From positions 3,033,108 to 3,097,107 of the forward strand of contig NZ_CP032630.1 in NCBI RefSeq assembly GCF_003627075.1: 64,000 nucleotides of DNA. The letters run 5' to 3'. Source of the stretch: Protaetiibacter intestinalis (GTDB lineage Bacteria; Actinomycetota; Actinomycetes; Actinomycetales; Microbacteriaceae). Every line of letters begins with the position of its first letter. Positions within the stretch are counted from its first letter, which is position 1. The notes beneath the pieces were generated by a model. That model made no database searches. It was given only the letters and a program-made list of their open reading frames with translations, and was not told the origin of the DNA. This document shows, piece by piece, positions 31,088 to 52,181 of the stretch. Both the position numbers and the translations under genes were made by a program.

Positions 31088-31100
31088 CCTCGAAAGAAGT

Positions 31101-31217
31101 CCGGCGGTGTCCTACTCTCCCACGAGGTCGCCCTCGCAGTACCATCGGCGCTGTAGGTCTTAGCTTCCGGGTTCGGAATGTAACCGGGCGTTTCCCCTAC
31201 GCTATGGCCGCCGAAAC
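31101..31217 (-). rRNA. rrf: 5S ribosomal RNA
   Basis: Read on the minus strand, the gene starts GTTTCGGCGGCCATAGCG and ends GTAGGACACCGCCGG; the two ends pair as the 5S helix I. The length of 117 nt is normal. It is last in the 16S-23S-5S operon and is followed by a strong terminator. Ends are set by helix I and may shift by a base or two. Confidence 0.95.
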
Positions 31218-31280
31218 ACTATTGATTTCTCAGTCAATGTGCTTCGAACAGTGTTCGAAGCGATTCCCGACCGTCAATCA

Positions 31281-31306
31281 GGAACCACAAAGTGGACGCG
31301 AGCAAC
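31281..31306 (-). other. 23S rRNA processing stem, 3' strand
   Basis: AGTGGACGCGAGCA (31291-31304 on the plus strand) is the exact complement of TGCTCGCGTCCACT at 34573-34586 in the 16S-23S spacer, and the bases around extend the pairing partially. The transcript can therefore close a long stem around the whole 23S sequence, the usual RNase III-type processing site. This is the 23S-5S spacer half. Confidence 0.7.
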
Positions 31307-31329
31307 TCGATTCGAAGAACTCATGTGTT

Positions 31330-36400
<5,071 letters not shown>

Positions 36401-48349: not shown

Positions 48350-48353
<4 letters not shown>

Positions 48354-49501
48354 GAGGCGTAGGCGCTGTTCTCGTGGACGTAGTCGTGGGTGAGGTCGTT
48401 GGTGAGCACGGTGGCCTGCTCGCCACCGGCGTGCAGGTCGATGAGCACGTGGACGGCCCGCGGGCGCAGGTCGACCTCGGTGCGGGGGCGGTCGGGGCCG
48501 CCCGCGCTGCAGACGCGCACGCCGTTCATCGACACGTCGACCTGGTAGGGGTCGAAGGCGGCGTCGGTCGTGCCGATCGCGGCGAGCACCCGGCCCCAGT
48601 TGGGGTCGTTGCCGAACACGGCCGCCTTGAAGAGGTTGCTGCGGGCGACGGCGCGCCCCACCTCGACGGCGTCGTCCTCGCTCGCCGCGCCCACGACCTC
48701 GATCGCGATGTCGTGGCTCGCTCCCTCGGCGTCCGCCTGCAGCTGGCGGGCGAGGTCCTGGCACAGCTCGACGAGCGCGGCCGTGAAGGCGTGCTGCTCG
48801 GGCTCGTAGCCGGATGCGCCGCTCGCGAGCAGGGTGACCTGGTCGTTGGTCGACATGCAGCCGTCCGAGTCGAGGCGGTCGAAGCTCACCCGGGTGGCCT
48901 CGCGCAAGGCCGCGTCGAGCTCGGCGGGCAGCAGCACGGCATCCGTCGTGATGACCACGAGCATCGTCGCGAGCCCCGGTGCGAGCATGCCCGCGCCCTT
49001 CGCCATGCCGCCGATCGTCCAGCCGCCCTGCCGCACGACCGCGGTCTTGGGCTTCGAGTCGGTCGTCATGATCGCCTCGGCGGCATCCGCGCCGCCCTTC
49101 TCGCTGCGCTCGACGGCCGCGAGGTGCGCGCCGTCGACGAGCTTGGCGCGGTCGAGCTGCTCGCCGATGAGCCCCGTGGAGCACACGAGCACGTCGCCCG
49201 CTGAGACGCCGAGCGCCTCGCCGACGGCCTCCGCCGTGACGTGGGTGGTCTGGAAGCCCTCCGCCCCCGTGAAGCAGTTGGCGCCCCCCGAGTTGAGCAC
49301 GATGGCGCTCACCGTGCCGTCGGCGATGACCTGCTCCGACCAGATGATCGGGTTCGCCTTCGCACGGTTGCTCGTGAAGACGGCCGCGGCGCTGCGCAGC
49401 GGGCCCTCGTTGACGACGAGCGCGAGGTCGCGCTTCTCGAAGCCCTTGAGGCCGGCGGCGATGCCGGCCGCGGTGAAACCGGATGCGGCGGTGACGCTCA
49501 C
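48350..49501 (-). CDS. argJ: Glutamate N-acetyltransferase / amino-acid acetyltransferase
   Basis: The 383-residue protein is made as a precursor that cleaves itself between Ala178 and Thr179 in [10 protein letters not shown], giving alpha and beta chains with Thr as nucleophile. [12 protein letters not shown] and [15 protein letters not shown] are family motifs. It transfers acetyl from acetylornithine to glutamate, closing the cyclic pathway. The GTG start overlaps the argC stop by 4 nt. Confidence 0.95.
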
Positions 49502-50547
49502 GGGGCGACTCCGTTCAGGGGAAGGCCGAGCGTCTCGGGGAGCCCGAGCGCGAGGTTGGCGGACTGGATGGCGGCACCCGCGGTGCCCTTGACGAGGTTG
49601 TCGATCGCCGACACGACGACGACCCGACCGGCGTTCTCGTCGACCGCGAGGCCCATGAGCGCCGTGTTGGCTCCGAGGGTGTCGCTCGTACGCGGGAACG
49701 AGCCCGCCGGCAGCACATGTACGAACGGCTCGTCGGCATAGGCGACCTGCCAGGCCTCCCGGACCTCGGCGGCGGAGACGCCCGACGCGAGCCGCGCCGT
49801 GGAGGTCGCGAGGATGCCGCGCGACATCGGCACGAGCACGGGCGTGAACGAGATGGAGACGCCGGCACCGCCCGCCGCGGTCAGGTTCTGCACGATCTCG
49901 GGCGTGTGCCGATGCGTGCCGCCCACGGCATACGCGGAGGCCGAGCCCATGATCTCGCTCGCGAGCAGGTCGGGGCGGAGCGACTTGCCCGCCCCCGAGG
50001 TGCCGACCGCGAGCACCGAGACGAGGTCGTCCGCCTCGACGACGCCCGCGGCGACGCCGGGTGCGAGGCCGAGGGTGATGGCGGTGACGTTGCAGCCGGG
50101 TACCGCGATCCGGGTGACGCCCGCGAGGGTGTCGCGCTGCTTCGCCGCGCCGCCGTCGAGCAGCAGCTCGGGCAGCCCGTAGCTCCAGGCCCCGTGGTAC
50201 TCGCCGCCGTAGAAGGCGGCCCAGGCGTCCTCGTCGGTGAGGCGGTGGTCGGCGCCGCAGTCGACGGCGAGCACGTCGTCGGGCAGCTGTGCCGTGACGG
50301 CGCCGGACGCGCCGTGCGGCAGGGCGAGGAAGACGACGTCCGCCTCGGCGAGCACGCGGGCCTCGGTCGGCTGGAGCACGAGCTCGGCGAGGCTCCTCAG
50401 GTGCGGGTGCACCGCCCCGAGCGGGGAGCCCGCGTTCTGGTGGGCGGTGACGACGCGGATCTCGAACTCGGGGTGGTTCGCGAGCAGCCGCAGCAGCTCG
50501 CCCCCCGCGTATCCGCTCGCGCCGGCGACGGCGACGGAGATGGGCAT
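49498..50547 (-). CDS. argC: N-acetyl-gamma-glutamyl-phosphate reductase
   Basis: The 349-residue NADPH enzyme reduces acetylglutamyl phosphate. The N-terminal site is [19 protein letters not shown], the catalytic Cys152 is in [10 protein letters not shown], and [14 protein letters not shown] holds the conserved histidines. It is the first gene of argCJBDF. AAGG stands seven bases before the ATG. The 150 bases upstream encode an Arg-rich peptide and alternative hairpins, described separately, which probably control the operon. Confidence 0.96.
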
Positions 50548-50564
50548 GGATCAACCTTATTGTT

Positions 50565-50642
50565 CGTGCGGACGGGGCTGAGGCGGCGACGTCGCACGAG
50601 GCTGACGGAGGGTCAGCGCTGCGACGTCGCCGAGATTCGGCG
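50565..50642 (-). promoter_or_regulatory. Putative arginine attenuator before argC
   Basis: Three competing stems can form in the transcript. CGCCGA (50642-50637, Arg codons 19-20 of the leader) pairs with TCGGCG (50633-50628). CGGCGACGTCGCA (50632-50620) pairs perfectly over 13 bp with TGCGACGTCGCCG (50596-50584), enclosing an inner GCTGAC/GTCAGC stem. CGTGCGACG (50598-50590) pairs with CGTCCGCACG (50574-50565), one bulge, ending seven bases before the argC ribosome site. A ribosome stalled at the Arg codons frees the middle stem and blocks the last hairpin; one at the stop codon does the reverse. No U-run follows the last stem, so it may act on transcription or on argC translation. The mechanism is inferred. 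Confidence 0.65.
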
Positions 50643-50696
50643 CGCGCGGCGGAGACGACGGAGCTCGACGCTCACGAACGACATCCGCTGACCCAT
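50613..50696 (-). CDS. Arginine-rich leader peptide of the argCJBDF operon (27 aa)
   Basis: ATG 50696-50694 opens a 27-codon frame with eight arginines, six of them clustered as ELRRLRRARR (residues 11-20), and the last residue before TGA is also Arg. TACCCT (50709-50704) is seven bases before the ATG, so translation would be leaderless, like other genes in the window. It lies between the DUF2252 stop and argC, where a regulatory leader is expected. The codons used include CGT, CGC, CGG and CGA, the last rare in this genome. Arg-rich short frames arise easily in GC-rich DNA, so the call rests on the matching alternative hairpins. Confidence 0.65.
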   Translation of the reverse strand: MGQRMSFVSVELRRLRRARRISATSQR

Positions 50697-50717
50697 GCCG
50701 TCGAGGGTAGCAGGGTT

Positions 50718-52097
50718 CTACACCGGGAAACGGCCATCGCGGGCCGCCTCGTCGAAGGCGGCGTGATCGGCCTCCGCCTGGTCCGCATAGGCGGCGCCCC
50801 AGCGCGCGACCGCGCGGTCGAAGGCGTCGCCGCCGCCGAGGTAGCCGGCGATGTACGGGGCGGCGGGACTCTGCGCGTGCCCGCGGGCGAGCACCATGCC
50901 GCACGCGCGGGCGTACCAGACGAAGCCGTCCTCGTCGAGCGTGTCGACCGCGACCGAGGAGTTGCCGTCGCGGAACTGCCGCACGTAGAACGCCCGCCCG
51001 TCGTTCTCGAGGTGGCCGAGGAAGGGGTCGGAGACCGCCTGCAGGATGCGCTGCCCGCTCACGACGCGGTAGCCGTGCTCGGCGATCGCGCGCTCCTCGC
51101 GCATCCCCGGCATCGACTCCCCCGGCATCCCCCCGTACTGGTAGGCGACCGCCTGCCCGGCCTGCTTGACCTGCATGACGAGCGGTTCGCCGTCGGGGCC
51201 GGAGAGGGCGATGATGTAGCACCGCGTGCCGACGCTGCCGACGCCGACCACCCGTCGCACGAGGTCGTCGATGCGGTAGTGCTGGAACAGCAGCGCGACA
51301 TCGGCGCGCACCGTGAGCAGGTACTCCTGGAAGAGACGCTCGACGACGTCGCGGAGCTCCTGGGCGACGTGACTCGACACCGGTGGATCCTCGACGAAGC
51401 GCCGGCGGCCATCCTCGCCCTGCACCGTGGTGCGCGCGATGACGCGGGATGCCGTGCGGCGCTTCGCCGCGCGACGCGCCTCGCGCACGACGGGGCGGAG
51501 GCTCCGCGGAGGCGCGACGCCCGCGTCGAGGTCGATGCGCCGGTAGAAGCGCTCGAGCGCGGGCAGCGCGTCGAGGCGGCGGAGCGCTCCCCGGTAGGCC
51601 TCCGCCGCGGCGACGGCGGCCGCCTCCGCCTGTACGGGCGAGCCGCCGAGGGCGCGTGCCGCGACGACGACGCTCGCGACGAGGCGCTTGACGTCCCACT
51701 CCCACGGGGCGACCGCGGCCTCGTCGAAGTCGTTCATGTCGAAGACGAGGCTGCGCTGCGGGGAGCGGTAGAAGCCGAAGTTCGACAGGTGCGCGTCGCC
51801 CGAGACGACGACGTCGGCGCCCGTCACGACCTCGTGGGCGAGGTCGGCCGCCTGGATGGCGGCGGTGCCGCGGTAGAAGGCGAACGCGCTCTCCCGCATC
51901 CGCGAGGTGCGCAGCCCGATGAGCTCGGGAACCCGGTCGACGTTCTGGTCCTCGACGATGCCGAGCGGATCCCGGCCGCCGTGCGGGTGGTACTCGGCGT
52001 GCGCGGAACGCGGAACCGACGCCCGCCGCGCCCGACCGGCTTCGCGGAGCGCGGCGCCCGACGCCATGTCGACGCCGTCCAGCTGGGTGAGGCTCAT
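50718..52097 (-). CDS. DUF2252 family protein
   Basis: The 459-residue protein has the family blocks ESAFAFYRGTAAIQAADLAH, VVVSGDAHLSNFGFYRSPQR, LVFDMNDFDEAAVAPWEWDV and QVKQAGQAVAYQYGG. DUF2252 proteins have a kinase-like fold (SGDAHLSNFG and FDMNDFDE resemble the catalytic and metal loops) with unknown substrates. The second ATG (52095-52097) has AAGGA six bases ahead and is preferred to the ATG at 52103. The gene is read towards the arg leader, whose promoter lies at its 3' end. Confidence 0.88.
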   Translation of the reverse strand: MSLTQLDGVDMASGAALREAGRARRASVPRSAHAEYHPHGGRDPLGIVEDQNVDRVPELIGLRTSRMRESAFAFYRGTAAIQAADLAHEVVTGADVVVSGDAHLSNFGFYRSPQRSLVFDMNDFDEAAVAPWEWDVKRLVASVVVAARALGGSPVQAEAAAVAAAEAYRGALRRLDALPALERFYRRIDLDAGVAPPRSLRPVVREARRAAKRRTASRVIARTTVQGEDGRRRFVEDPPVSSHVAQELRDVVERLFQEYLLTVRADVALLFQHYRIDDLVRRVVGVGSVGTRCYIIALSGPDGEPLVMQVKQAGQAVAYQYGGMPGESMPGMREERAIAEHGYRVVSGQRILQAVSDPFLGHLENDGRAFYVRQFRDGNSSVAVDTLDEDGFVWYARACGMVLARGHAQSPAAPYIAGYLGGGDAFDRAVARWGAAYADQAEADHAAFDEAARDGRFPV

Positions 52098-52181
52098 GAG
52101 CATTCCTTCCCGGTGCCGGTGACTCTAGCGGTCGGGGGTCTACAGTGTGCGGCATCGGACTTCGAGGGAGAGGACCACACC

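What the first reader, a model, noticed from the sequence alone, without database searches (positions are those of the whole stretch)
50565..50709. Arginine-responsive ribosome-mediated attenuator before argCJBDF
A -10 box (TACCCT), a start codon seven bases on and a 27-codon frame with eight Arg codons (ELRRLRRARR cluster) precede argC. The Arg19-Arg20 codons form one strand of a short hairpin; its other strand is the start of a 13-bp perfect stem, which in turn competes with a third hairpin that ends just before the argC ribosome site. Stalling at Arg codons favours the 13-bp stem and opens argC; reading to the stop codon, which is immediately past the left arm of that stem, favours the last hairpin and closes it. 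Amino-acid leader attenuators are known for trp, leu and ilv operons in actinobacteria, but I know of no established arginine one; ArgR repression is the textbook mode. The structure is seen in the sequence; the function is inferred.
Basis: partly seen in the sequence, partly recalled or inferred. Interest (0 to 1): 0.92.

Follow-up and report, generated by a model that had tools for sequence, protein, structure and literature searches.

The report
Arginine-codon switch before argC
In one bacterial family, whose genomes examined here lack the usual arginine repressor, many members carry a short arginine-rich reading frame and a conserved folding RNA just before their arginine-making genes, which probably lets a stalled ribosome switch those genes on when arginine runs short.

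Summary
The -10 box, 27-codon frame with 8 Arg codons, 13-bp stem and last hairpin are at the stated places. A covariance model of the element hits 69 of 149 Microbacteriaceae genomes at E<=1.5e-5, all 69 abutting argC, and no genome outside the family in a draw of 297 from the order. A leaderless Arg-rich frame lies in the expected frame in 55 of 56 aligned loci, in 0 of 56 in each other frame, and in 17 of 20 loci left out of the alignment. Stem 2:3 folds better than shuffles (mean z -3.7) and covaries. ArgR was found in 0 of 149 family genomes but in 268 of 297 of the order. Best reading: an arginine-codon, ribosome-mediated attenuator standing where ArgR is missing. No intrinsic terminator follows, so the output is probably argC translation; this and the arginine response are inferred. 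The closing hairpin is less well supported. TAAGGT over the argC ribosome site may be a second promoter. A 2005 survey saw no such element for arginine in Actinobacteria.

The parts
50704..50709 (-). -10 box TACCCT of the leader transcript; start codon 7 nt on, so the mRNA should begin at or next to the ATG (leaderless)
   Evidence: TANNNT 6-9 nt before an in-frame start in 56 of 56 aligned loci, 43 at 6 nt and 11 at 7 nt; background 17 of 261 sampled start codons at 5-8 nt
50613..50696 (-). leader ORF, 27 codons plus TGA, 8 Arg
   Evidence: conserved in the genus and in much of the family
50637..50660 (-). Arg cluster, codons 13-20 (RRLRRARR), proposed sensor codons
   Evidence: Arg in the last 14 codons over 56 loci: 342 in frame, 56 and 139 in the other frames, of 784
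50637..50642 (-). strand 1 (CGCCGA, codons 19-20), pairs with UCGGCG
   Evidence: fold; nearly invariant, no covariation
50620..50632 (-). strand 2, left arm of the 13-bp stem
50601..50617 (-). small hairpin in the loop of stem 2:3, variable in sequence between genomes
   Evidence: loop segment mean z -1.47 over 56 loci, below -1 in 37
50584..50596 (-). strand 3, right arm of the 13-bp stem
50564..50599 (-). hairpin 3:4 (TCGTGCG 50599-50593 with CGCACGA 50570-50564), alternative to stem 2:3
   Evidence: 4 or more joining pairs in the MFE in 48 of 56 loci, 9 or more in 39 of 56, against 62% and 32% of shuffles
50555..50558 (-). Shine-Dalgarno AAGG of argC (the 16S 3' end in the window reads CACCTCCTTTCT)
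   Evidence: an [AG]AGG 4-20 nt before argC in 56 of 56 aligned loci
50554..50559 (-). TAAGGT, 6 nt before the argC ATG: possible -10 of a second, leaderless argC promoter overlapping the Shine-Dalgarno
   Evidence: TAAGGT 6 or 7 nt before the start in 43 of 56 aligned loci
49498..50547 (-). argC, first gene of argCJBDF (argJ, argB, argD, argF frames end at 48350, 47439, 46249, 45326)

Best explanation
It is an arginine-responsive, ribosome-mediated attenuator. Transcription starts at the leader's own start codon and a ribosome translates the Arg-rich frame. When charged tRNA-Arg is short the ribosome stalls on the Arg cluster, covers strand 1 and leaves strand 2 free; strand 2 pairs with strand 3 (13 bp), hairpin 3:4 cannot form, and the argC ribosome site stays open. 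When arginine is plentiful the ribosome runs to the stop codon and covers strand 2; hairpin 3:4 then forms right before the Shine-Dalgarno and lowers argC initiation, and the untranslated operon may then be lost to Rho. Shown: the parts, their conservation, the frame, the spacing, the covariation of 2:3, the absence of ArgR from the genomes searched. Inferred: the start point, stalling, the arginine response, and that the output is translational.
For: Element next to argC in 69 of 149 family genomes (7 of the 69 with a pheT end in place of the leader), 69 of 69 hits abutting argC, one strong hit in the window's own genome (2.5e-22; next 0.009). Leaderless Arg-rich frame in 55 of 56 loci in frame, 0 and 0 of 56 in the other frames; in 17 of the 20 rows left out of the alignment. 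Stem 2:3: mean z -3.68 over 56 loci against -1.11 for 95 argC upstream stretches outside the aligned set; positions 10-13 pair in 39, 38, 32, 35 of 56 against 25, 27, 22, 23 expected from exchanged partners, position 10 using GC, CG, GU and UG. 3:4 has the best score of 36 window pairs in the exchange test (z -5.7). Arg codons and stop sit where stalling and release would need them in 56 of 56. Leader Arg codons avoid CGG and AGR (39 of 443) compared with argC (100 of 269), as expected if one isoacceptor is read (assignment recalled). ArgR in 0 of 149 family genomes, in 268 of 297 of the order. No intrinsic terminator. No such frame before argG (0 of 9 genus loci) or argH of the window.
Against: No expression data. 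3:4 is not unusually stable (mean z -0.32; -0.92 for the longer stretch, no better than the -1.11 of the controls), and AAGG pairing does not differ between the two states (unpaired 0.48 and 0.44, p 0.26), although AAGG with the 12 nt before it does (0.59 and 0.48, p 9e-6). Exchange z-scores are inflated by kinship: pairs with no proposed helix reach +4.1, strand 1 with strand 4 also gives -5.6, and 2:3 itself, with its invariant core, only -3.2. Strand 3 was anchored by the best match to strand 2, which favours pairing somewhat. Stem 1:2 does not covary. TAAGGT may drive a leaderless argC mRNA that bypasses the leader. Up to 75 of 145 argC-bearing family genomes show no such frame in my scan yet also lack ArgR.
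Confidence: 0.78

Rival explanations
1. Output is at transcription: 3:4 or the untranslated stretch behind it promotes RNA polymerase pausing or Rho termination, rather than blocking argC initiation.
For: AAGG itself is not consistently paired in the closed state; Rho together with an arginine-codon leader is known for Salmonella orf34-speF (abstract and passages).
Against: No U tract: longest T run from 12 nt before AAGG to the ATG is 1-3 in 56 of 56 loci; 0 terminator-like sites in 50450-50800; the hairpin sits at the ribosome site in 48 of 56 loci.
Confidence: 0.3
2. argC is transcribed mainly from its own leaderless promoter (TAAGGT, 6-7 nt, ATG); the upstream transcript is a minor species or a separate small RNA or peptide acting in trans.
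For: TAAGGT before argC in 43 of 56 aligned loci and TANNNT there in 65 of the 95 other loci, with the spacing of the leaders' own -10.
Against: 13 of 56 aligned loci lack the -10 form but all 56 keep [AG]AGG, while 43 of 87 other loci with a located start have no Shine-Dalgarno-like motif (p 3e-12). The conserved element runs up to argC.
Confidence: 0.15
3. The leader peptide acts by its own sequence: an arrest peptide that senses free arginine, like the fungal arginine attenuator peptide (recalled), or a functional small protein.
For: A C-terminus like RRISATS.R is shared across one group of loci.
Against: Lengths of 20-37 aa and very different N-termini; the stop lies before strand 2 in 31 of 56 loci and after its start in 25. 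The shared C-terminus overlaps strand 2, so RNA pairing can explain it.
Confidence: 0.06
4. Conserved structure without arginine control: a translation-coupling or mRNA-stability element whose Arg codons reflect GC-rich RNA pairing.
For: Strand 1 is made of Arg codons and pairs with strand 2; in 7 of 149 genomes a pheT 3' end stands in place of the leader.
Against: The Arg excess is specific to one frame also without the two strand-1 codons (242 against 56 and 138 of 672), and codon choice is skewed.
Confidence: 0.1

Closest known systems
Ribosome-mediated attenuators of amino-acid operons (trp, his, leu, ilv leaders; in Actinobacteria trp, ilv and leuS candidates, PMC1262725)
   Same: Short leader frame with clustered cognate codons before the operon of that amino acid; alternative stems; stalling opens, completed reading closes.
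   Different: Arginine, which that survey lists among pathways without a conserved RNA structure in Actinobacteria (passages; its genomes included Leifsonia xyli); leaderless frame; no intrinsic terminator.
Salmonella orf34-speF (PMC6386406, abstract and passages)
   Same: Consecutive Arg codons in a leader; pausing at low arginine lets a hairpin after the stop form and keeps the downstream ribosome site usable.
   Different: Polyamine gene, conserved DUF2618 peptide, Rho and RNase G involved, also ornithine; unrelated sequence and taxon.
Cysteine-codon uORFs before actinobacterial cys operons (candidates in PMC1262725, passages; leaderless translation and experimental work recalled)
   Same: Short actinobacterial uORF with clustered cognate codons and no clear terminator.
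   Different: Cysteine; that survey found no conserved hairpins that could act as terminators there.
ArgR repression of arg operons
   Same: Same genes and presumably the same physiological aim.
   Different: ArgR found in 0 of 149 genomes of the family draw.

Membership tests
ribosome-mediated amino-acid attenuator | short leader ORF with clustered codons for the operon's amino acid | tested here: met
ribosome-mediated amino-acid attenuator | mutually exclusive RNA stems conserved by covariation | tested here: inconclusive
   2:3 supported; 3:4 supported by exchange test and pair counts, not by stability; 1:2 invariant
ribosome-mediated amino-acid attenuator | sensor codons and stop codon placed to mask strand 1 or strand 2 | tested here: met
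   56 of 56; ribosome footprint size recalled
ribosome-mediated amino-acid attenuator | intrinsic terminator as the closing hairpin (transcriptional type) | tested here: not met
ribosome-mediated amino-acid attenuator | expression responds to the amino acid through leader translation | not testable with these tools
   needs reporter and growth experiments
ArgR-controlled operon | ArgR encoded in the genome | tested here: not met
   0 of 1 own (C-terminal domain); 0 of 149 family, window genome included
known Rfam RNA families (T-box, riboswitches, other leaders) | match to a covariance model | tested here: not met

The most novel reading that the evidence does not exclude
The family Microbacteriaceae lost ArgR at its base and handed arginine control of argCJBDF to a leaderless, terminator-free, translation-level attenuator that reads mainly one tRNA-Arg isoacceptor, backed by a second leaderless argC promoter built into the Shine-Dalgarno; in some lineages the tail of the tRNA-synthetase gene pheT has since replaced the leader ORF inside the same RNA switch.
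Probability: 0.35. Interest if true: 0.82.

Novelty: new variant of a known kind. Interest (0 to 1): 0.74.

Why it matters
Arginine biosynthesis is the textbook case of control by a repressor protein. Here a whole bacterial family shows no ArgR in 149 genomes searched, and about half of those with argC carry instead an RNA switch that the ribosome would read. If true it adds arginine to the amino acids whose biosynthesis is controlled by leader translation, gives a natural experiment in how a protein regulator is replaced by an RNA one, and makes that replacement directly testable.

Tried and rejected
Rfam at gathering and E-value thresholds: no relevant match. RNAalifold on the MAFFT alignment A1 gave four invariant pairs and no covariation, the spacer being misaligned; replaced by anchored counts. 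That 3:4 sequesters AAGG in general was tested and not supported. 1:2 covariation: none. A second copy: no Arg-rich leaderless frame before argG in 9 of 9 genus loci, where TAGGCT stands 6 nt before GTG (one search had located only 5 of the 9 starts), none before argH of the window, and no second strong model hit in the own genome. The idea that the leader descended from the pheT tail (similar ends) was set against an ArgC tree of 52 rows that holds 4 of the 7 pheT-tail loci: L031 and L033 fall inside leader-bearing loci; L019 and L035 join two loci without a leader beside a leader-bearing one. So replacement of the leader by pheT is likelier than the reverse (one gene tree, many weak forks; four weak leader loci were labelled as leader-bearing and two loci without it that group with the family as outgroup). 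An Arg-codon count held one locus read on the wrong strand (L009); it was redone without it and only that is used.

Rows dropped. The first pattern, which asks for strands 1, 2 and 3, gave 76 of 151 loci; 10 were set aside as pheT-tail or spurious, 5 were re-anchored and 10 added, giving 76 references, of which 56 were aligned. Invariant columns there are partly by construction. Of the 20 left out, 17 have a leaderless Arg-rich frame and L150, L195 and L202 do not by the scan (its list of 13 'held-out' loci, 13 of 13, had left out seven of the 20).

Full report
What is there. On the minus strand before argC lie, in order, TACCCT (50709-50704), seven bases, and a 27-codon frame (50696-50613; MGQRMSFVSVELRRLRRARRISATSQR) with eight Arg codons. 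CGCCGA of codons 19-20 can pair with the UCGGCG that follows; CGGCGACGTCGCA (50632-50620) and TGCGACGTCGCCG (50596-50584) form a perfect 13-bp stem around a small hairpin (50617-50601); a last hairpin (50599-50564) ends five bases before AAGG, and argC starts at 50547. Folded from strand 2 on, the RNA takes the 13-bp stem (-41.2 kcal/mol, z -5.6); folded from after the stop codon, it takes the last hairpin, in this genome prolonged by an outer stem that pairs the GG of AAGG (-22.5, z -4.0); folded whole, it takes 1:2 and 3:4. The genes behind are argC, argJ, argB, argD and argF; argH is separate, beyond a gene on the other strand; argG is elsewhere in the genome.

Conservation in the genus. 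The window belongs to a 3,097,107-base single-contig genome; its ArgC is 88% identical to that of Protaetiibacter mangrovi, whose contig has the same length and place as that of the genus member G003. 9 of 9 genomes of the genus keep the frame, with the pattern MxQR...ES..LRR.RR.RRISAT or near it. Between 8 of them, third codon positions differ most in codons 12-20 (30 against 12 and 19 at first and second positions) but not over the whole frame (94 against 121 and 85).

Conservation in the family. ArgC was found in 145 of 149 family genomes drawn, and the upstream stretches of the 145 were taken. 56 loci (51 from the draw, 5 more from the genus) were aligned; they were chosen by pattern, as told under rows dropped. 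In 56 of 56 a start codon in the frame of the conserved CGA codon has TANNNT 6 to 9 bases upstream, 43 at exactly 6 and 11 at 7; the leaders have 20-37 residues and 6-10 Arg. With spacing limited to 5-8 the count is 55 of 56 in frame and 0 of 56 in each other frame; 17 of 261 sampled background start codons have such a box. Arg fills 342 of the 784 codons next to the switch in frame, 56 and 139 out of frame. Of 20 rows left out of the alignment 17 have such a frame, as do L156, L171 and L173. So at least 70 of the 145 argC-bearing genomes drawn carry it.

A covariance model from the 56 (9 pairs) has a match at E <= 0.05 in 86 of 149 family genomes; 69 genomes have one at E <= 1.5e-5, and those 69 of 69 end at argC, while most of the weaker ones lie elsewhere. 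7 of the 69 are of the pheT type described below. In the window's genome there is a single strong hit. In a draw of 297 genomes of the order 21 match at E <= 0.001, all 21 in the family; by my count from the handles 25 of the 297 are family members, so 0 of 272 others match. In 80 named argC loci, which partly repeat the same genomes, 12 score over 60 bits: 10 are titled Microbacteriaceae or genera that I recall as its members, 2 are MAGs titled only at order level; no Nocardioides, Streptomyces, Pseudonocardia or similar locus exceeds 21 bits.

The missing repressor. Neither ArgR domain is found in any of 149 family genomes, although the same searches ring in Corynebacterium glutamicum and 7 or 8 other controls of 14. 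In the order draw 268 of 297 genomes have ArgR and no family member is among the hits listed, so by my count 25 of the 29 misses are the family and 4 lie outside it. Absence of ArgR does not imply the switch: up to 75 of 145 family genomes with argC showed no such frame. Among the 95 loci outside the alignment (20 of them with a leader after all) 51 have pheT within the upstream stretch read and 65 a TANNNT before argC.

Structure. Stretches from strand 2 to strand 3 fold better than shuffles with mean z -3.68 over 56 loci; 80-nt argC upstream stretches of the 95 other loci give -1.11. Positions 10-13 of the stem pair in 39, 38, 32 and 35 of 56 loci against 25, 27, 22 and 23 if partners are exchanged; position 10 uses GC 11, CG 11, GU 9, UG 7 times. 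Positions 9 and 14-16 do not clearly exceed expectation. Strand 3 was anchored by its best match to strand 2, which favours pairing somewhat. For 3:4, native partners bind better than exchanged ones (0 of 5000 permutations as good; z -5.7, the best of 36 window pairs), and 39 of 56 loci show nine or more joining pairs against 32% of shuffles, with quite different sequences (for example GAGTGGGCG with CGCCCACTC, TCGTGCG with CGCACGA). Against it, its energy is no better than shuffles (z -0.32; -0.92 for the longer stretch), and exchange tests are blurred by kinship: pairs without a proposed helix reach +4.1, strand 1 with strand 4 gives an unexplained -5.6, and 2:3, much of it invariant, -3.2. 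Stem 1:2 is invariant and cannot be tested.

Mechanism. At least two Arg codons lie 14-42 bases before strand 2 in 56 of 56 loci, so a ribosome waiting there would cover strand 1 and leave strand 2 free; the stop codon begins 2 bases before strand 2 in 31 loci or 13-22 bases after its start in 25, so a terminating ribosome would cover strand 2 in both designs (footprint sizes recalled). No stop lies between, but there the conserved GGCGAC leaves little room for one, so this gap is not evidence by itself. The leaders use CGC, CGU and CGA in 404 of 443 Arg codons and AGA or AGG in none, while argC of 19 loci uses CGG, AGA or AGG in 100 of 269; choosing an isoacceptor that loses charge first is what theory expects (PMC1183508, passages; which tRNA reads which codon is recalled). 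There is no U tract, so I favour an effect on argC initiation. AAGG with the 12 bases before it is more open with 2:3 formed (0.59 against 0.48, p 9e-6), AAGG alone is not (0.48 against 0.44, p 0.26). Rho polarity on an untranslated operon may add to it.

A complication. TAAGGT stands 6-7 bases before argC in 43 of 56 aligned loci, with the spacing of the leaders' own -10 boxes, and 65 of the 95 other argC genes have TANNNT there. All 56 keep [AG]AGG, whereas 43 of 87 others with a located start have no Shine-Dalgarno-like motif. I read this as a double-purpose box: a second leaderless promoter for basal argC, and a ribosome site for the regulated long mRNA. It is inference.

Evolution. In 7 of 149 genomes (G012, G036, G040, G087, G102, G107, G143) the model matches but the codons before strand 2 are the end of pheT. 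On an ArgC tree with 4 of the 7, one pair falls inside leader-bearing loci and the other joins leaderless loci beside a leader-bearing one, which suggests that pheT replaced the leader, perhaps twice. Support on many forks is low.

Known or not. PMC1262725 (passages) found trp, ilv, leu and cys elements in Actinobacteria and states that no conserved RNA structure was seen before arginine operons; one member of this family, Leifsonia xyli, was in its set. Salmonella orf34-speF (PMC6386406, abstract and passages) is the nearest in logic. The passages seen of PMC8632094 and PMC4997734 (it cites a leader peptide before carA of Pseudomonas aeruginosa, with control by pyrimidines) show nothing equivalent. 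Ten searches of open-licence papers (titles and abstract starts seen) showed no arginine-operon attenuator in Actinobacteria; subscription papers were not covered. Rfam has no match.

Verdict. What is added here is that it is an element of much of a family, standing where ArgR is missing. Whether arginine really moves it remains to be measured.

Noticed in passing
L031, L033, L035, L019, L148, L165, L168 (argC upstream): The attenuator model matches where the end of pheT (tail like GERFGATLRD) takes the place of the Arg leader; strand 2 lies inside the pheT reading frame.
   Followed up: partly
50554-50559 minus and the same place in 43 of 56 aligned loci: TAAGGT overlaps the argC Shine-Dalgarno and fits a leaderless -10 box for argC.
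   Followed up: partly
50696-50687 with 50555-50546, minus strand: In the fold of the whole leader the start of the leader ORF (AUGGGUCAGC) pairs with the argC ribosome site and start (GUUGAUCCAU); not tested in relatives.
   Followed up: no
strand 1 and strand 4 of 56 loci: Strand 1 and strand 4 windows also pair better natively than when exchanged (z -5.6), though no helix between them is proposed.
   Followed up: no
L020, L024, L043, L044 (Salinibacterium type): Degenerate version with a weak model match (about 20-22 bits); in L020 and L024 the leader has only 5 Arg and ends GADERR.
   Followed up: no
L251-L259 (argG of the genus): argG has TAGGCT 6 nt before its GTG in 9 of 9 loci and no leaderless Arg-rich frame within 350 nt: it looks leaderless and outside this switch.
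   Followed up: yes
50718-52103 minus: A DUF2252 gene lies between pheT and the leader; its stop is just upstream of the leader's -10 box.
   Followed up: no
31099-36400 minus: An rRNA operon (16S, 23S, 5S) with no tRNA gene in it or elsewhere in the window.
   Followed up: no
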